From the NCBI RefSeq assembly GCF_000069225.1, contig NC_010407.1:248001-312000 (forward strand): a stretch of 64,000 nt of DNA, read 5' to 3'. The translations under genes and the position numbers were made by a program. This document shows, piece after piece, positions 45,432-53,054 of the stretch; within the stretch, counting starts at the first letter, position 1, and every line of letters starts with the position of its first letter. Source of the stretch: Clavibacter sepedonicus. GTDB taxonomy: Bacteria; Actinomycetota; Actinomycetes; Actinomycetales; Microbacteriaceae. A model generated the notes under the pieces. The model was not told where the DNA came from, searched no databases, and saw nothing but the letters and a program-made list of their open reading frames with translations.

Positions 45432-46184
45432 TCACTTGCACCGGCTGTTCCACCAGTACGGCAGGACGAAGTACATCCCGCTGTACACGCACGGGGTGTT
45501 CATGAGGTAGGTGATGAGCATCGAGCCCGCTGCCCCGATGAAGGCGCACGCGACCGCCCCGGTCAGGGCGCAGAGCGCGCCGATGTCGAACGAGCCAGCC
45601 CCGGCTACCAGGAGCCTCATCGCGGCGGGCGAGATGCTGAGGGTGATGGACGGGTGGGTGATGTGGTGCCAGAACGACTTCCAGCTGTCCGACGCCACGA
45701 GGGGATCCGACGCGATGGAGGACGTCGTGCCCGCCACGAGGTGCCCGAAGGCGTCGGCGTCGACCGGGATCGACGTCGAGGCCTGTCCGGGACGCGCGAG
45801 CCGGAGCTCCGCCACCTCCGACGCGGTCTCGCGCACGAGCTGGGCGTGCTCCGCGGCACGGGCCTCGGACGAGAGCCCGCGGGCCGCTCCGGAGGTGACC
45901 TCCGCCGCATCCGCGAGCTGGTCGACGGTGATGCGACCGGAGCGGATGTCGGCTTCCGTGGTGCCGGCTCGGACGGATGCCGCGAGCGCGGGGGAGATCG
46001 CTGCTGCTGCCGGTGCCGTCTGGTGGGTCGCGGCGTGCGCGGGCGTGACGCCGGTGGTCGTGAGGCCCACCGCGATGATGGCGACGAGGGTGAGGAGGAA
46101 GGGCGCGCTCCGCCACCTGACGGGGGATCGGGACGCGCGATAGGCGGTGCGGGAGGTGGATCGGGTGATGGAGTGAATGGGCAT
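45432..46184 (-). CDS. Secreted four-cysteine protein, paralogue 1
   Basis: 250 residues; family not recognised. A signal peptide (FLLTLVAIIAVGLTTTGVTP, AHA-A cleavage near residue 53) is followed by a helical, Ala/Glu-rich region with SGRITVDQLADAAE and EHAQLVRETASEVAELR. The C-terminus is hydrophobic and glycine-rich, with Cys205, Cys213, Cys232 and Cys249. Cys213 to Cys232 spans 19 positions, as in the paralogue at 51400-52089. It ends in WWNSRCK. The hydrophobic, Gly-spaced, two-disulfide end could insert in a membrane (bacteriocin- or pore-like) or form a secreted structural domain; neither is shown. GGAGG precedes ATG 46184. A TetR-type operator lies upstream. Confidence 0.7.
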   Translation of the reverse strand: MPIHSITRSTSRTAYRASRSPVRWRSAPFLLTLVAIIAVGLTTTGVTPAHAATHQTAPAAAAISPALAASVRAGTTEADIRSGRITVDQLADAAEVTSGAARGLSSEARAAEHAQLVRETASEVAELRLARPGQASTSIPVDADAFGHLVAGTTSSIASDPLVASDSWKSFWHHITHPSITLSISPAAMRLLVAGAGSFDIGALCALTGAVACAFIGAAGSMLITYLMNTPCVYSGMYFVLPYWWNSRCK

Positions 46185-46292
46185 CAATGCCTCCGTGGTG
46201 CGGGTGGTTCGGGATGGGGTGAGGATCCGGTCGAACAGAGGGTGCACTTCGACACGTCACTGTGTCCAGGCCGGGCGGGTGTTGTCGACCGG

Positions 46293-46324
46293 AGGCTATG
46301 TCGCTCGTCAGTCGGTCGTCTGAC
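46293..46324 (-). promoter_or_regulatory. Promoter with TetR-type operator for paralogue 1
   Basis: Minus-strand -10 TAGCCT (46298-46293) lies 8 bp from an 18-bp element at 46307-46324, GTCAGTCGGTCGTCTGAC. The latter matches the palindrome beside tetR (52198-52215) at 15 of 18 positions, with outer arms GTCAG/CTGAC, and occupies the -35 region of this promoter. Repression of the four-cysteine gene by the TetR at 52329 is therefore plausible. Confidence 0.6.
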
Positions 46325-46368
46325 TTGTCCACATGCGGCTGCGGTGTCGGATGGCGTCGCACGTGGCA

Positions 46369-46404
46369 CCGCCCTCCGGCCCGCGGGTGCGGGTCGGAGG
46401 GCGG
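46369..46404 (-). terminator. Terminator of the surface protein gene
   Basis: CCGCCCTCCG / CGGAGGGCGG, 10-bp stem, about 28 bp beyond the LPXTG protein's stop codon. The loop itself contains a further GCCCGC/GCGGGT pairing. Confidence 0.6.
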
Positions 46405-46432
46405 CGGGTGGTGCGCGGTCGACCGCGTCGGG

Positions 46433-49202
46433 TCAGGCGCGCGCGGTGCGGCCCGGGTGCGCGCGGCGCCGGCGGCGTGATCCGAGCGCGGCCGCGGAGC
46501 CGACGAGGAGCAGCAGCGCCGCGAGGGCGAGCGCCGACGCGGGCGAGGAGCCCGTGCGCGGAAGCGACCCGCGGATGCGGGCGCCGGAGGTGCCCACAGG
46601 GCTCGAGCCGTCCGCCGAGAGCGCGCCCGCCGAGAGCGTGCCCGCGACGGCCGATCCGCCGGAGGACGTGCCGGGAACGGTGCCCGAGCCCGGGTCTGTG
46701 CCCGCCGCGGATCCGGATGTGGTCCCGGACCCGGACGGGTCGACCGCCACCGCGGCCGTGGTGACCACGCCCGCGGCCACGTCCGCGGCGAGCCCGGAGG
46801 CGTCGACGAGGTGCAGGCCCGTCACGGTGCGCGCGGCGGAGGCGGTGACGTCCTCCGCGAGCAGCGCCGATCCGCCGTCGGGCAGCGCGAACCGCGTGCC
46901 CGGGGCGATGTCGCCCGCCGCGAGCGCCTGTCCGGCGATGAGGCCGCCGTCGCTCGAGACGCGCGCCGTGCCGCCGTCGACCGCGACGCGGAGGCCGCGG
47001 ATCTCGACGGCGGTGCGGGTGCCCGGGTAGAGGTCCACCTCGTCGAGGGAGGCGCTGCCGGATCCGCGGGCGGACGCGAGCCGGATCCCGGTCGCGCGGA
47101 CCTGCCCGGCCGCGCCGTCCCCGGCGGTCCCGCCCGCGTCGGTTGCGACGTCGGAGGCCGCGAGCGCGTCGGGAGCGGCCGGGTCGCCGCACCGCCCGCC
47201 TCCGCGTCTGGCCGCGCCACGGGCGTCGCCGCGACGGCGCTGGGTCCGGTCGCCCGGATCCCGTACGCCGACCAGCCGGTGGGCGCGGTATCGGGGACGG
47301 GTGCGGGCGTCGGCGTCGGATCCGGCGGGGGTGCGGTCGAGCCGCCGGCCGCGAGGGTCACGACGCCCAGCCGGACCTCCGGATGCTGCCCGGTGAGGTC
47401 GCGGTAGTGCAGGGTGGTGAGCGTCACCGTCCCGTCCACGGCGACCATCCGCTCGCCGAAGCGCACCTCGACGCGCGGCGCTCCGGTCTCGTCGACCCCC
47501 GTGTAGAGGTCGGTGGTGGTGTCGATCCAGACCCCGTTCACGAAGACCGCGTTCCCGGCGTCCGCGAAGGACACGGTCATGGCGCCCGCGGCGGAGACGG
47601 CCGCGTGCAGGCCGTTCACGCGCAGCGCCGGCCAGCGGTAGTCGGCGAGCGGATCCGTGGAGGCGCCGGGAACCTGCCGGAACGCGCCCACGTCGACCGT
47701 GGCGGTGCCCGCGGCGTCGCCCGTGCCGAGGTCGACCGCCACGGCCGACGCGGTGTCGGGATCCGTGCCCGTGCCCGTCACGGAGTCCGCCGCGGCGTGC
47801 GGCTCGGCCACGGTCGCGACGGGTCGTGGCGCGACGAGCACGCCGCCGTCGGGCGCCCGGACACCCACGCCGTACGCGCCGATGACCTGCCCGGCAGCGG
47901 GCGGCGCGACGACCGTGCCGAGCCGCACGTCCGGGTGCGCACCCGTGAGGTCGCGGTAGTGGACGGCGGTGACAGTGAGCGTCCCGTCGGGCGCCACCTC
48001 CCGCTCGCCGAAGGCCACGGTCAGGCGGGGCGCGCCCTGCGCGTCGACGCCCGTGTAGAGGTCCGTCGTGGTGTCGATCCAGCGGCCGTCGACGAAGACC
48101 GCGCTGCCGGGATCCGCGAATCCGGTCGTGACGGCGCCCGCCGGCGTGACCGTGGCCGTGAGGCCGTAGACGCGGAAGGCCGTGGGGCGGTACTCGGCGA
48201 GCGGGTCGGCGGGCGCGCCCGGGAGCTGCTCGAAGGACCCGACGCCGACGGTGGTGGTGCCGTCCGCGCCCGTGGCGACGTGGACGCCGGTGGCGTGCTC
48301 GGCGGATCCGTCGGTCGCGGCCAGGTCGTCGGCGGTCGCCGTGCGGTCGAGCCCGTCGACGCGCGGCTGCCCGTCGATGGGGCGCGTCCCGTCGGGCGCC
48401 GTGACGGTGACGCCCGTCGCGACGCGGCCGGGCGCGGGGGCGGGATCCGGCGCGGGGGCGGGGTCCGGCGCCGGTGTCGGCTCGGGCGCCGGCGTGGGCT
48501 GCGGGGCCGACGTGGGAGTCGGCGTGGGCGTCGGGATCGCCGCCGCCGCGCCCGCGCACGTCACAGATCCGGCGCGCACACGCCAGATCTCCGATGCCCC
48601 GGGCTCCGCCTCCACGTCCACCCCATGGTGGTCGCGGATCCGTCGTCGCCCGTCGACGTGGCACCGACGATGACGCGAGTCGCGCCGTAGACCGACTCCG
48701 GCAGGTCGCGCGACCAGCCCGGCGTCGCGTCCGCCTCGGCGGTCACGTCCACGCCGCCGATGGTCAGCCGGTCGAGGTGGACGGACGGCGTGCCGCCGGG
48801 CGTGCACGTCACGGTGAGGCCCGAGAACGCGATCGCGGGCCGGTCCCGGAGGGTCAGCTCCCCGCTCGCAATGGCGCTCGTCGCGCCGGCGGGACCGGCG
48901 GTGGAGGAGAGGCCGCTCGTCCGGGTCGTGTTCTTCTTGAGCACGTCGCCGGTGGAGGCGACGGTGCGCGCGACCGCGGCGCCCGAGGTCCACTCCGCGA
49001 GCGGCGTGGGGGCGGTGAGGGTGTCGCCGTCGATGTCGATGATCTCGACGCCGGACGCCCGCGTGGTGATGGTGGCGGCGGCCTGTGCCGAGGTCGCGAC
49101 GACCCCACCGCAGGCGAGGAGCGTCGCGAGGGCGCCGACGCCGGCCGTGCCGAGGATCCCCAGCCGGGCGCGCGAGGCGGCGCCGCGCGTGCGCGCGCTC
49201 AT
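46433..49202 (-). pseudogene. LPXTG-anchored surface protein with two repeats, two single-base frameshifts
   Basis: Read through two frame changes this encodes about 920 residues. It begins MSARTRGAASRARLGILGTA with a signal peptide (SAQA-A cleavage). A ~200-residue domain with cysteines follows (TVTCTPGG, VRAGSVTCAG), a T/P linker, two ~165-residue repeats (each with VFVxGxWIDTTTDLYTGVD and HYRDLTGxHPxVRLG) and a last repeat-like part. The end LPRTGSSPASALALAALLLL then RRRRR is a sortase signal. Frame breaks are near 48621 (C-run) and 47186-47193; each would be repaired by adding one G/C. It may be a real loss or a sequencing error. Start ATG overlaps the protease stop. Confidence 0.75.
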
Positions 49203-51217
49203 CGTCCCGCCTCCGCGCCGAGGCCCTCGACGAACGCGCGACCCGCGGGCACGCCGGCCCCGGTCACGTCGTCCCAGCCGGGGCCGGATCGCAGGCTCTG
49301 CCTCCCGGTGTCCCACAGGAAGAGGGTCTCGGGCCACAGCGCTCCCGCGGACGGTCCGGTCGGCGACCAGGTGGCCGCGGACGCAGGCTGCACGTCGCGC
49401 AGCGCGCCCGTCCCCATCAGCGCGTAGATGGCGGGGCTCGCGAGGCCGAAGCGGCGGCCCGTCACGGCCTTGGAGATCGCGACCATGGAGGCGACCATCG
49501 GCGTCGCGAGGCTCGTGCCGCCGTGCGTCGCGTACTCGGTGCGGCCCTTGTGCGGGCCGTAGGTGACGAAGCCCGTGTTCGGATCGCCGAGCGAGGCCAC
49601 GTCCGGCAGCAGCCGCCCGGTGCCGTGGACGGAGAGCCGGTCGGCCTGCCAGCTCGGTCGCGCGTACTCGGCGGACTGCCCGCCGCCCGCCCCGAAGGCG
49701 AAGCCCGGCGGGATCAGCGCGCCGTTGCGCGCGAAGCGGGTCTCCGTCTCCCAGCCCGCCTCGACGGCGATCGAGCCGTCCTCGGCGAGGCCGGTGCTCG
49801 TCGCGCCGACCGCGGTCACGTACGGGCTCGACGCGGGCGACGCCACCGTGGCGTTCCCGCCGTGGTCCCCGAAGCCGCTGTAGTCGCCGTCGTTGCCGGT
49901 GGATGCGAACACCGAGACGTCGCGCGACGCCGCCTCCACGAGCACCCGGTTCAGGAGCTCGCGGTCGTCCGCGGTGTCGAGGCCCTCCATGCCACCGAAG
50001 GAGAGGCTGATCACGTCGGGCCCCTCCTCGGCGGCGTCGAGGATCCGCGTGTACAGGCTCGTGCTGGTGCAGTCGTCGGCACCCCAGTAGGAGACGGTCG
50101 CGTCGGGCGCCATCGCGTGGACCGCCTGCACGTCGAGGTGCTGCTCCTCCGTCCAGGCCGTCGGGCCGCCGCAGATCCCGGTGCGCGGAGAGGCGGACGG
50201 GTGGTCCAGGTACTGGCCGGCCGAGAAGGCGGGCTCGCCGACGGCGCGGGAGTAGGTGTCGGTGTCGGCCGCGGTGTCCGGGTCGTCGTACGCGGCGACG
50301 ATGGCGACGGTCGCGCCGGCACCGCGGTCCTCGGCGGGCACGTCGTCGACGCGGCGCAGCTGCGCCGGGCCGTATCCGCACAGCGAGTCCGAGCGGTGCG
50401 CCACGTCGACGGATGCGGGCCACGCGTCGGTGAGGCGCTGGCCCCACCACGACGCGCACGTGCCGTCGTCGGCGGATGAGGCGGGGGATCCGCCGCTCGC
50501 CTGCCCGGGGATCGGCGCGGGGACGGGGGTCGCGGCGTCGGGCGTCGCGGCGTCGGGCGCCTGCGTGCCGGCCGCCTGCGCGTCGTCCGCCTCCGCGTCC
50601 GAGGGCATCAGCACGTCGCCCTGCGCGGTGCCGGCGACCCCGCGGACGGCGTCGAGGGCGGCGGGAACGGCGAGGGTCCGCTCCGGGGCGACGACCTCCC
50701 GGCCGCCGACGCGGAACCGGGCGAACCCGGTGTCGAAGGCCCGCGACGCGCGCGCCAGCGTGCCGGAGACGGGCAGTGCCGCGACGTCGCCGCGCACGTC
50801 CCCCACGTCGAGGCCGCGGTCGCGCAGCCAGGCGGCCACGGCGGGCGCGGCGTCGGCGCGGGTGGGATCCAGCAGCACGGTGAACGCGGCCGTCGCGTCC
50901 GCGGGCGCGTCCCCGAGGCGGGTGGCGGAGCCGCCGGGCCAGGACGGGGCCGACCCGTTGAGCGTTCGGAGGCCCGACGCGGCGCGCGCGACGGCCGGGT
51001 CGGCCACCGCCGACGCGGATCCGGTGCCCGCGAGGGTGCTCGCGGCGAGCGCCGCGGCGGCCATGAGGGCGACGGCGCCCGTGCCGAGGGCGACGCGGCG
51101 CGCGCGCGGCGGCACCGGGATCCGGCGGGCGAGGGCGCGGATCCGGCCCTCCGTCGGCGGGCGCTCGGCGGGCCCGTCGGCCTCGAGCGGTGGGAGGGAC
51201 GAGGGGCGAGAGGGCAT
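49199..51217 (-). CDS. S53 sedolisin-type secreted serine-carboxyl protease
   Basis: 672 residues. An N-terminal signal/anchor helix at about 42-63 is followed by a prodomain of the pro-kumamolisin type (about 70-250) and the catalytic domain. The triad is visible: Glu358 and Asp362 in WTEEQHLDVQAVH and Ser569 in THGGTSLATPMVASM, with the calcium site GWDDVTGAGVPAGRAF near the end. Sedolisins are acid-active endopeptidases secreted and matured by self-cleavage. In plant-associated actinobacteria such enzymes can act on host or competitor proteins. ATG 51217; its TGA overlaps the ATG of the LPXTG gene, so both form one operon. Confidence 0.92.
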   Translation of the reverse strand: MPSRPSSLPPLEADGPAERPPTEGRIRALARRIPVPPRARRVALGTGAVALMAAAALAASTLAGTGSASAVADPAVARAASGLRTLNGSAPSWPGGSATRLGDAPADATAAFTVLLDPTRADAAPAVAAWLRDRGLDVGDVRGDVAALPVSGTLARASRAFDTGFARFRVGGREVVAPERTLAVPAALDAVRGVAGTAQGDVLMPSDAEADDAQAAGTQAPDAATPDAATPVPAPIPGQASGGSPASSADDGTCASWWGQRLTDAWPASVDVAHRSDSLCGYGPAQLRRVDDVPAEDRGAGATVAIVAAYDDPDTAADTDTYSRAVGEPAFSAGQYLDHPSASPRTGICGGPTAWTEEQHLDVQAVHAMAPDATVSYWGADDCTSTSLYTRILDAAEEGPDVISLSFGGMEGLDTADDRELLNRVLVEAASRDVSVFASTGNDGDYSGFGDHGGNATVASPASSPYVTAVGATSTGLAEDGSIAVEAGWETETRFARNGALIPPGFAFGAGGGQSAEYARPSWQADRLSVHGTGRLLPDVASLGDPNTGFVTYGPHKGRTEYATHGGTSLATPMVASMVAISKAVTGRRFGLASPAIYALMGTGALRDVQPASAATWSPTGPSAGALWPETLFLWDTGRQSLRSGPGWDDVTGAGVPAGRAFVEGLGAEAGR

Positions 51218-51264
51218 GCGGGATCCGGCTTCGATTCAGGGGGAGTGCGCGAGAGCGCATGCGG

Positions 51265-51292
51265 AGGCTATCCCTGTATGAGAACGGTTCTC
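51265..51292 (-). promoter_or_regulatory. Candidate promoter and palindrome for the protease operon
   Basis: Minus-strand TAGCCT (51270-51265), in the same ATAGCCTCCG context as in the four-cysteine promoter, is 9 bp from a palindrome GAGAACGGTTCTC (51280-51292). The palindrome covers the -35 region, suggesting a repressor distinct from the TetR. The leader would be about 45 nt. Confidence 0.4.
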
Positions 51293-51335
51293 GCCACCTG
51301 TGGAGGGCGGGCGGCATGCCCGCCGCACATGACGA

Positions 51336-51365
51336 GGCGGCGGGCTGGAGAGCCAGCCCGCCGCC
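51336..51365 (-). terminator. Terminator of four-cysteine gene 2
   Basis: GGCGGCGGGCTGG / CCAGCCCGCCGCC with loop AGAG, a 13-bp perfect stem starting about 35 bp past the stop codon. Confidence 0.75.
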
Positions 51366-51399
51366 CCGCGTCCCGGTCAGGCGACCGGGTCCGGCGTCA

Positions 51400-52089
51400 T
51401 CAGCCGCAGTGCGACTTCCACACCTTCGGGAAGTCGAAGTAGTAGCCCAGGCCGCAGGTCCAGCTCTTGATGAACTCGCCGAGGCCCCCGACGACCACGC
51501 CCAGCGCGATGCAGGAGAGCCGTGAGAGGTCGAGCGTGATGCACACCGTGCCGATGTAGGCGGCGACGCCCAACGTGATGATCGTCTTCACGACATAGCC
51601 GGGGATGTGCCACTCGTGGTTGCTCCACGCCCACTTCGACTCGGTGATGCCCGCAGGGACGTCCTTCTGCGGGGTGACGGTGTGCCCGTCCTGCACCTGC
51701 AGGGCCTGGCGGATGGACGCGTTCTCCACCGCGTTGGCGTGGGACGGTGCGGAGTCCGCCAGCTCCGCACGGATCTCGGTGGCGACCTGCGCGTGGCTCT
51801 CGCCCTTCGCGACCCATGGCTGGATGTGCTGGCCGCCGACGACCACGCCCTCCGTGGCGACCGACGCGAGCTGGTCGGCGGTGATCTTGCCGCTCTTCAC
51901 GTCGTGCTCGAACGTGCCGTTGAGGAGGGACGAGGCCACGGCCGACTGCTCGAGGTGGGCGGGGGCGGCCTGGGCGGCGTCGCCGGAGCCCAGCCCGAAG
52001 AGCGCGACGGCGGTGACGGTGACAGCGGCGGCGAGCAGGCGGACGGACGGGCGGAAGTGGGCGGGGGCTGTGGGGGATGCGAGGGACAT
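51400..52089 (-). CDS. Secreted four-cysteine protein, paralogue 2
   Basis: 229 residues. The layout matches 45432-46184: a signal peptide (LLAAAVTVTAVALFGLGSGD, AQA-A cleavage near residue 42), then FEHDVKSGKITADQLASVAT, a helical middle (HAQVATEIRAELADS) and a hydrophobic C-terminus. Cysteines 183, 193, 212 and 228 give a 19-position Cys-Cys spacing (193-212) as in paralogue 1 (213-232); the end is WKSHCG. Overall identity is low, so the two diverged long ago. The function is unknown. GGAAGG precedes ATG 52089. It diverges from tetR, whose operator lies between. Confidence 0.7.
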   Translation of the reverse strand: MSLASPTAPAHFRPSVRLLAAAVTVTAVALFGLGSGDAAQAAPAHLEQSAVASSLLNGTFEHDVKSGKITADQLASVATEGVVVGGQHIQPWVAKGESHAQVATEIRAELADSAPSHANAVENASIRQALQVQDGHTVTPQKDVPAGITESKWAWSNHEWHIPGYVVKTIITLGVAAYIGTVCITLDLSRLSCIALGVVVGGLGEFIKSWTCGLGYYFDFPKVWKSHCG

Positions 52090-52196
52090 GCCTGACCTTC
52101 CGTATCGAGGGGCGACCATCGCCCCGCGAGCACGGTAGGGGCGCGATCCCCGCGCTCAGTGATCCATCGACTACGTCCCGGTGAACGCCGCATGTC

Positions 52197-52216
52197 CGTC
52201 AGACGATTGTCTGACG
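52197..52216. promoter_or_regulatory. TetR-type operator (perfect palindrome)
   Basis: CGTCAGACGATTGTCTGACG consists of two 8-bp inverted arms around GATT. It lies 113 bp before the tetR start and 107 bp before the four-cysteine gene on the other strand. A degenerate copy (15/18) is at 46307-46324. This is a typical size and symmetry for a TetR binding site. Confidence 0.7.
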
Positions 52217-52328
52217 AGCGCTCGCTCGCCACGGATCCGGCTCCGGACGTCCACGCCGCTGTCGGCTTCCCGGCGACCCGGGTGGGTACCATTCCTCGAT
52301 CCCCGACCGGCGGCGGACAAGGAGTGAC

Positions 52329-53054
52329 ATGAACCAGCGGCAGGCGGCGGTGTCCCGGGCGCGGCGCGAGATCGTCGAGGCGGCGGGCGCCCAGTTCGCG
52401 ACCCACGGGTACGAGGGCACGTCGTTCTCCCGGGTGGCCGAGGCGATGGGGAAGCCCAAGTCCGCCATCGGGTACCACCTCTTCGCGTCCAAGGAGCGCC
52501 TCGCGGGCGCGGTCGTCGAGGACCAGGAGGACCGCTGGCTCCGCATCGAGGCGGCGCTCGACCGGAAGGGGGTGCTGCACGAGCTCGTCGTCTTCCTCCT
52601 CACCGGCGCCAGCACGGTCGAGGTCTGCCCCGTCGCTGCCGGCGCCATCCGGCTCCTGCAGGACATGCCGCGCCTCGGCCTCGCCGTCGAGCGCCGCTTC
52701 GACGTGTGGCGGTTCACCCGCGAGCACCTGGAGGCGGAGCTCGCGGCGCAGGGCGTCCGCGCCGCCGACCTCGACGCCGTCGTCGACGTCCTGCTCAGCG
52801 CGACCTTCGGCGTGCTCTCCTACCGGTCGCCGAGCGCGCCGGAGGGGGATCGGCTGGAGCGGCTCCGCAGCCTCTGGATCCCGCTGCTCACCCACCTGGG
52901 GCTCGCCGACGTCGACGCCGTCGTGCGCGCCGCCCAGCCGCTCGACCTGGCCCTCGTGGAGGAGGGCCGCGCGGACGCCTCCGAGGCCCACGTCTGGACG
53001 GGACGCGGCGACGCGGACGACGCCTCCTCGGATCGGGACCGCGCCCGCGCCTGA
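52329..53054 (+). CDS. TetR-family transcriptional regulator
   Basis: 241 residues. The N-terminal TetR helix-turn-helix (about 10-55) reads ARREIVEAAGAQFATHGYEG and TSFSRVAEAMGKPKSAIGYH. The C-terminal ligand domain is helical; the last ~30 residues are a disordered, acidic/Arg-rich tail (GRGDADDASSDRDRARA). AAGGAG precedes ATG 52329. The palindrome at 52197-52216 in the divergent gap is the probable autoregulatory site. A related site at the distant paralogue 1 suggests that this repressor controls both secreted four-cysteine proteins. The ligand is unknown. Confidence 0.92.
   Translation: MNQRQAAVSRARREIVEAAGAQFATHGYEGTSFSRVAEAMGKPKSAIGYHLFASKERLAGAVVEDQEDRWLRIEAALDRKGVLHELVVFLLTGASTVEVCPVAAGAIRLLQDMPRLGLAVERRFDVWRFTREHLEAELAAQGVRAADLDAVVDVLLSATFGVLSYRSPSAPEGDRLERLRSLWIPLLTHLGLADVDAVVRAAQPLDLALVEEGRADASEAHVWTGRGDADDASSDRDRARA

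What the first reader, a model, noticed from the sequence alone, without database searches (positions are those of the whole stretch)
46293..52216. One TetR operator may control both four-cysteine genes
CGTCAGACGATTGTCTGACG lies next to tetR and the divergent gene 51400-52089. A 15/18 match lies in the -35 region of the promoter of the distant paralogue (46307-46324). That links tetR to both four-cysteine proteins in one regulon 6 kb apart.
Basis: partly seen in the sequence, partly recalled or inferred. Interest (0 to 1): 0.7.

Follow-up and report, generated by a model that had tools for sequence, protein, structure and literature searches.

The report
TetR regulon of secreted proteins

Summary
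In the 3.40-Mb genome only two loci match the 18-mer with up to 3 mismatches: the tetR/51400-52089 intergenic site and 46307-46324 (reversed control 0). The palindrome (core AGACGNNCGTCT) recurs across Clavibacter before several secreted-protein families, including four-cysteine genes far from tetR, and upstream of the nearest tetR homologues found in other genera. This TetR is the best candidate to bind both sites; the one-regulon reading is supported but too narrow. A third promoter-type site, about 580 kb away, precedes another secreted protein, while three further four-cysteine paralogues lack the site. In two relatives the 45432-46184 orthologue faces a 42-codon tetR remnant: probably a duplicated cassette that lost its regulator. 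The TetR resembles Streptomyces hormone receptors in sequence and predicted fold, but AfsA was found in 0 of 18 Clavibacter genomes. Binding, inducer, and repression versus activation are untested. The window is from Clavibacter sepedonicus, so bench tests are referred.

The parts
52197..52216 (.). Operator 1: palindrome CGTCAGACGATTGTCTGACG between tetR and the divergent four-cysteine gene
   Evidence: Exact; conserved at -109 from the same gene in 7 of 9 P0002 orthologues (G000, G158, G109, G152, G156, G157, G151; not G154 and the truncated G034 copy)
46307..46324 (.). Operator 2: GTCAGTCGGTCGTCTGAC upstream of the paralogue, 15 of 18 to operator 1
   Evidence: the orthologous site in G109 and G160 is the perfect-arm GTCAGACGGTCGTCTGAC
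52329..53054 (+). tetR (P0003, 241 aa), hormone-receptor-like TetR-family regulator
   Evidence: Pfam TetR_N above cut-off; NCBIfam ScbR_bind_reg E 1e-20 but 74.7 bits, under its cut-off of 150; PDB sequence and fold hits to CprB, TylP, AvaR1 and 6srn/7ky1
51400..52089 (-). Four-cysteine secreted-type protein P0002 (229 aa), divergent from tetR
45432..46184 (-). Four-cysteine secreted-type paralogue P0001 (250 aa)
   Evidence: an upstream GTG at 46247 in the same frame is the mechanical ORF start
52132..52137 (-). Likely -10 hexamer TACCGT of the P0002 gene, 62 nt past the operator core
   Evidence: TANNNT at the same 62-nt spacing in 7 of 7 orthologues that have the site; consensus inference, no transcript data
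46293..46298 (-). Likely -10 hexamer TAGCCT of the P0001 gene, 10 nt past the operator core
   Evidence: Aligned with TACCGT/TATCGT at 11 nt in G109/G160, read by eye; inference
52287..52292 (+). Likely -10 hexamer TACCAT of tetR
   Evidence: TANNNT at this place in all seven rows of the alignment, read by eye; inference

Best explanation
The TetR encoded at 52329-53054 is a probably dimeric, probably ligand-responsive regulator that recognises the palindrome AGACGNNCGTCT (extended form GTCAGACGNNCGTCTGAC). It binds at 52197-52216, between its own gene and the divergent four-cysteine gene, and in trans at 46307-46324 before the paralogue. It also binds at a third site outside the window (G000:C2:881465), before a 174-aa secreted protein. 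It is the regulator of a small Clavibacter regulon of secreted proteins whose membership differs between species. The 46-kb locus is most likely a duplicate of the cassette four-cysteine gene/operator/tetR; the duplicate's own tetR decayed while the operator was kept. Binding of a small diffusible or host-derived molecule would change DNA binding and switch the secreted proteins together; repression relieved by the ligand is the default, as in the CprB/TylP/AvaR1 group (recalled). Shown by computation: the sites, their conservation, their placement before secreted-type genes, their tie to this tetR clade, and the hormone-receptor-like predicted fold. Inferred: binding, dimer, ligand, direction of control, and the role of the secreted proteins.
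For: Own genome: only two loci at up to 3 mismatches, reversed control 0. Of 20 sites matching CAGACGNNCGTCTG with up to 1 mismatch (reversed 10), 17 lie in called ORFs and 3 outside them, all 3 before secreted-type genes. Genus: 16 strict sites in 11 of 18 genomes, reversed control 1; 14 of 16 lie 109-183 nt before the matched stretch of a four-cysteine gene, including loci far from tetR. Of 47 relaxed sites, 35 have a predicted secreted ORF within 260 nt, against 55 of 600 random and 56 of 400 intergenic positions. tetR tie: the four best non-Clavibacter homologues of the 150 genomes searched (42-50% identity) all have an AGACGNNCGTCT palindrome upstream, G077 ahead of the run of genes that ends in its tetR. 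Among 42 tetR loci, 12 of 22 with the GYHLF variant have a 9- or 10-of-10 core within 400 nt (8 perfect), against 2 of 20 of the others, none perfect. The one Clavibacter genome without this tetR, G154, has no such site before its P0002 orthologue. In G109 and G160 a 42-codon tetR remnant faces the P0001 orthologue across the operator. A Curtobacterium plasmid homologue of P0002 has CAGACGTTCGTCTA (11 of 12) 78 nt upstream. Fold: the best 31 PDB chains are all of the hormone-receptor group.
Against: No binding or expression data. tetR orthologues in 9 of 16 Clavibacter loci have no site within 400 nt of tetR itself (L008, L081, L082, L084-L089). G164 keeps a tetR (76%), but neither of its two relaxed sites precedes a predicted secreted gene or tetR. 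Three of five four-cysteine paralogues in this genome have no site: C2:427615, C2:2797391 and C1:28491, best 8-9 of 12. The P0001 relatives at 47% identity in G162 and G163 have none either. The relaxed genus scan finds 47 sites against 30 for the reversed pattern, a modest excess, and 12 of 47 have no predicted secreted gene nearby. The operator-to--10 spacing varies (10-11, 29, 34, 50-52, 62 nt) and in several groups no hexamer was found. The signal-peptide rule is my own rough one; at least one of the 35 hits (G163:C26) was credited to the wrong neighbour, and the baseline loci hold some target genes. Sites in orthologous genes are not independent.
Confidence: 0.85

Rival explanations
1. 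Same regulon, but the TetR activates the secreted-protein genes from upstream of their -35 instead of repressing them.
For: Likely -10 hexamers lie 62 nt past the operator core in the P0002 group, 50-52 nt in the third four-cysteine group and 29 nt in the 174-aa group, putting the operator centre near -80, -70 and -48; these spacings differ by about one and two helical turns; the two window promoters show no sigma-70 consensus.
Against: In the P0001 group the hexamer is only 10-11 nt away, a repressor-like overlap. One group (L183, 34 nt) is out of phase; over seven groups a Rayleigh test of phasing gives p about 0.07. The -10s are inferred. The nearest characterised relatives are known as repressors (recalled).
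Confidence: 0.33
2. The palindrome belongs to another, unlinked regulator, and its place beside tetR is a coincidence of shared ancestry.
For: 9 of 16 Clavibacter tetR loci have no site of their own.
Against: The palindrome follows this tetR clade into four other genomes at 42-50% identity and into second tetR copies in G155 and G163. In 299 Microbacteriaceae genomes the perfect 14-mer occurs in 15; in G004, G120 and G034, which have the clade, it lies before tetR or a secreted gene, while in 10 of the other 12 genomes it lies inside a called ORF. Six of those 12 were searched for the tetR and have no close homologue; the other six were not searched.
Confidence: 0.08
3. The second site is a chance 15/18 match and only the tetR-adjacent site is real.
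For: It has one imperfect arm.
Against: No other locus in 3.4 Mb matches as well; orthologous sites in G109 and G160 are perfect-armed and sit in the same place.
Confidence: 0.04
4. The palindrome acts as an RNA hairpin (attenuator or terminator), not as a protein site.
For: It is a near-perfect inverted repeat.
Against: It lies upstream of the likely -10 where one was found, the window copies are not terminator-like, and in the aligned promoters the central bases vary while the arms are kept.
Confidence: 0.03

Closest known systems
Streptomyces autoregulator (gamma-butyrolactone, butenolide, furan) receptors: CprB, TylP, AvaR1, ScbR, and 6srn/7ky1 (recalled to be MmfR)
   Same: TetR_N domain and all-helical TetR fold; best sequence hits (6srn 9.8e-11, CprB 2.8e-10, the receptor of 5xay 1.4e-9, AvaR1 4.6e-8) and fold hits; acidic pI 5.45, and the review PMC4748050 (passages read) says only acidic receptors bound the autoregulator; W127 aligns with a CprB Trp
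   Different: 74.7 bits against the ScbR-family cut-off of 150; one-residue insertion giving GYHLF in the helix-turn-helix region; predicted targets are secreted proteins, not a metabolite cluster; AfsA in 0 of 18 Clavibacter genomes
Vatr1, TetR-family virulence regulator of C. michiganensis
   Same: TetR family, same genus; an EMSA on the xysB promoter is published (PMC12455917: section 8 and passages read)
   Different: Only 2 of 7 residues named for its ppGpp docking match P0003; its sequence was not compared, so identity is unlikely but not excluded
TetR-family local repressors with a palindromic operator between divergent genes (recalled kind)
   Same: Divergent layout and palindrome between tetR and its neighbour
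   Different: Several unlinked predicted targets, varying by species

Membership tests
TetR family (Pfam PF00440) | TetR_N helix-turn-helix domain above gathering score | tested here: met
   32.6 bits against cut-off 24
TetR family (Pfam PF00440) | Binds a palindromic operator near its own gene | not tested
   Site present and conserved; binding is a bench test
ScbR-type autoregulator receptor (NCBIfam NF041196) | Score above curated cut-off | tested here: not met
   74.7 bits against 150
ScbR-type autoregulator receptor (NCBIfam NF041196) | Fold closest to hormone receptors | tested here: met
   The best 31 of the 50 PDB chains shown are all of this group; predicted model, pLDDT 85.7
ScbR-type autoregulator receptor (NCBIfam NF041196) | Companion AfsA-type synthase in the genome | tested here: not met
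   PF03756 in 0 of 18 Clavibacter genomes (where the control genomes were silent too); the same search rings in 35 of 246 genomes of the class. Aco-type synthesis was not searched
ScbR-type autoregulator receptor (NCBIfam NF041196) | Binds a diffusible small-molecule signal | not testable with these tools
   No ligand data
One regulon for both four-cysteine genes | Site before both genes, rarer than chance | tested here: met
One regulon for both four-cysteine genes | Site conserved at orthologous promoters | tested here: met
   P0002 group 7 of 9, P0001 group (66% or more identity) 3 of 3, remote group 6 of the 8 aligned
One regulon for both four-cysteine genes | Expression depends on tetR | not testable with these tools
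   No expression data held

The most novel reading that the evidence does not exclude
Plant-associated Microbacteriaceae carry a hormone-receptor-like signalling system without an AfsA synthase. It senses an unknown butenolide- or furan-type signal, made by another route, by neighbouring Streptomyces or by the plant. It switches a fast-changing arsenal of secreted proteins: four-cysteine proteins, a beta-helix-like protein, small Cys-containing proteins and, in one relative, a secreted-type chorismate mutase.
Probability: 0.3. Interest if true: 0.8.

Novelty: new variant of a known kind. Interest (0 to 1): 0.6.

Why it matters
I found no description of this regulon in what I looked at: the listings for 'Clavibacter' with 'gamma-butyrolactone' (10 papers), with 'TetR family' (9 papers) and with 'regulon' (12 of 52 papers listed), the core sequence itself (0 papers), and passages of a review that name Clavibacter only for LuxR-type homologues (PMC4748050). 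If it holds, one 12-bp motif predicts which secreted proteins of unknown function are switched together in a genus of crop pathogens and plant-associated bacteria. It would also show that a hormone-receptor-like clade works outside Streptomyces-type secondary metabolism, and it makes the missing signal a searchable question.

Tried and rejected
Rejected: chance match. Rejected: a two-gene regulon (third promoter-type site). Rejected: all four-cysteine genes regulated together; three of five in this genome have no site. Not shown: identity with Vatr1. Led nowhere: Pfam, NCBIfam and PDB searches for the four-cysteine family (weak matches under every cut-off); its predicted structure (pLDDT 61.9, pTM 0.36) and fold search (best E 2.0), so no function is claimed for it. 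Sigma-70 scans found no promoter. The AfsA search in the genus alone had a silent control, answered by the class-wide search. The best-score null was drawn from loci that themselves hold sites and is not used. Helical phasing is only suggestive (p about 0.07). 'gamma-butyrolactone receptor' with 'TetR' and 'Microbacteriaceae' gave 0 papers; a search for orphan autoregulator receptors gave 2 Streptomyces papers, listing only; two searches on Clavibacter secreted or antimicrobial proteins (listings; passages of PMC12089995, PMC7839047 and PMC9190974) named no such regulon.

Rows dropped: L079 (tetR match with an internal stop) and the short matches L028, L034 and L035 were left out. One search scanned 44 of the four-cysteine matches (others, such as C2:427238, had no locus of their own or were duplicates); 19 of 44 had a site of at least 12 of 14. 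The two strict sites in G159:C8 and G160:C5 were fetched but not examined further. One search found 16 sites; 15 were read and the sixteenth, whose place is ambiguous.
Full report
Where it is. One search names Clavibacter as the genus of the nearest TetR relatives. A stretch of the genome's 50-kb contig is 99.9% identical over 3,859 bases to a Clavibacter sepedonicus plasmid record. The window is C2:248001-312000 of a 3.40-Mb genome in three contigs.

The observation. Both sites are real and placed as stated. In the whole genome the 18-mer with up to three mismatches gives these two loci only, the reversed pattern none. The arm-only palindrome GTCAGNCNNNNGNCTGAC gives the same two without mismatch. 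A 15-of-18 match is thus not common.

Conservation of the sites. The strict palindrome occurs 16 times in 11 of 18 Clavibacter genomes, once for the reversed pattern; 14 of the 16 precede a four-cysteine-family gene. Three orthologous groups carry it: the tetR-divergent gene in 7 of 9 genomes, the 46-kb paralogue in 3 of 3 (G000, G109, G160), and a third group, not beside tetR, in 6 of the 8 genomes aligned. In the third group the palindrome stands out as a conserved block in otherwise diverged DNA. The copy of that third gene in this genome (C2:2796705) and in G156 lacks it.

A wider regulon. The relaxed core CAGWCGNNCGWCTG occurs 47 times in the 18 genomes, the reversed pattern 30 times. The excess is modest; position separates them. 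35 of 47 have a predicted secreted ORF starting within 260 nt, against 55 of 600 random and 56 of 400 intergenic positions by the same rough rule. The targets fall into seven BLAST clusters: the four-cysteine family (20 sites, two perhaps joined by signal peptide only), a 165-178-aa family (6), a beta-helix-like protein (3; Pfam match just under its cut-off), an amidase-type protein with a divergent small secreted-type protein (2), a pair in G159/G160 (2) and two singles. One single, G163:C26, was credited to the wrong neighbour by the rule; its minus-strand neighbour is also secreted-type by eye. In the window's genome, of 20 sites with up to one mismatch to CAGACGNNCGTCTG (reversed 10), 17 are inside called ORFs and three are not: the two of the finding and C2:881465, before a 174-aa secreted-type protein with no Pfam match.

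Link to this TetR. Among 42 tetR loci, 22 carry the variant GYHLF in the helix-turn-helix region, and 12 of these have at least 9 of 10 core positions within 400 nt upstream (8 perfect); of the other 20, two reach 9 and none 10. The four closest homologues outside Clavibacter among the genomes all belong to the variant and carry AGACGATCGTCT or AGACGAGCGTCT: at -68 in G004, twice in G050 and G120, and in G077 at L154:8361-8374, ahead of a 64-aa ORF, a secreted-type chorismate mutase and tetR. In 299 Microbacteriaceae genomes the perfect 14-mer occurs 16 times, reversed never; in 10 of the 12 genomes other than G004, G120 and G034 it lies inside a called ORF. G154, the one Clavibacter genome without this tetR (17 of 18 have it), has no site before its P0002 orthologue. 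Against this, G164 has the tetR but no site before a predicted secreted gene or tetR, and nine of sixteen Clavibacter tetR loci lack a site of their own. A P0002 homologue (46% identity) on Curtobacterium flaccumfaciens plasmids has CAGACGTTCGTCTA 78 nt upstream in the one record read.

History of the second site. In G109 and G160 the P0001 orthologue faces, across the operator, a tetR remnant of 42 codons (57-60% identity) that ends at the start of the next gene. The simplest account is duplication of the whole cassette, decay of the extra tetR and retention of its operator, now served in trans. No remnant was found in the window at 46000-49500. The acetyltransferase-like gene (named by eye) next to the remnant in G109/G160 lies on the other side of P0001 here, so the segment was probably rearranged.

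How it may work. A TANNNT hexamer lies 62 nt past the core in the P0002 group (7 of 7 rows with the site), 50-52 nt in the third group (7 of 8 rows, G162 and G163 counted in), 29 nt in the 174-aa group (5 of 6) and 10-11 nt in the P0001 group (1 of 3 by the rule, the other two by eye); in several other groups none was found. Only the P0001 geometry is a clear overlap with a -35. Repression and activation therefore both remain open; I favour ligand-relieved repression because of the nearest characterised relatives (recalled), with activation at about one third.

The regulator. Sequence and predicted fold (pLDDT 85.7) place P0003 next to CprB, TylP, AvaR1 and the hormone receptor of 6srn/7ky1 (MmfR, name recalled). 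It fails the ScbR-family cut-off, and AfsA is found in 0 of 18 Clavibacter genomes. It works like a hormone receptor by inference; it is not filed as one. Vatr1, a known TetR-family regulator of the genus, shares only 2 of 7 named residues.

The four-cysteine proteins. The family was found in Clavibacter and on Curtobacterium plasmids; genomes of other genera were not searched for it. It has a signal-type N-terminus, a variable middle and, in a low-confidence model, a C-terminal pair of helices with four Cys, two of them invariant in 27 sequences. No known family or fold matched. The P0001 orthologues in G109 and G160 have lost two of the four Cys.

Novelty. TetR regulons are a known kind. This regulon, its motif and the pairing of a hormone-receptor-like TetR with secreted proteins in the absence of AfsA were not seen in the listings and passages I looked at. 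The library lacks most subscription papers.

Noticed in passing
G000:C2:881465 (L174:1466): Third promoter-type operator of this genome, 82 nt before a 174-aa secreted-type protein (C2:881562-882086) without Pfam match; same arrangement in G109, G152, G156, G158 and G159.
   Followed up: yes
L154:8361-10037 (G077): TAGACGATCGTCTA precedes a 64-aa ORF, a secreted-type chorismate mutase (CM_2, E 7e-14) and tetR in one direction.
   Followed up: partly
L153:10082-10336, L154:8392-8586, L241: Small proteins with a shared C-x-C...DH pattern stand next to the palindrome in G004 (two places) and G077.
   Followed up: no
L155:10119-10919 (G050): A metallo-beta-lactamase-fold hydrolase gene follows the tetR homologue; a lactonase role is a guess.
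   Followed up: no
L159:11993-12628 (G163) and L160:10180-10821 (G155): Second tetR copies (41-43% to P0003) with their own AGACGATCGTCT; in G163 flanked by two four-cysteine genes.
   Followed up: partly
window 46433-48993: A surface-type protein with an LPRTG-like C-terminus appears split between two reading frames (by eye); described only.
   Followed up: no
window 49199-51217: Protease with Peptidase_S8 and pro-kumamolisin domains next to the four-cysteine gene; no site of the searched kinds before it.
   Followed up: partly
G000:C2:425858-427615: A further four-cysteine paralogue without operator lies directly beside a transposase-type gene (IS481-like by eye).
   Followed up: no
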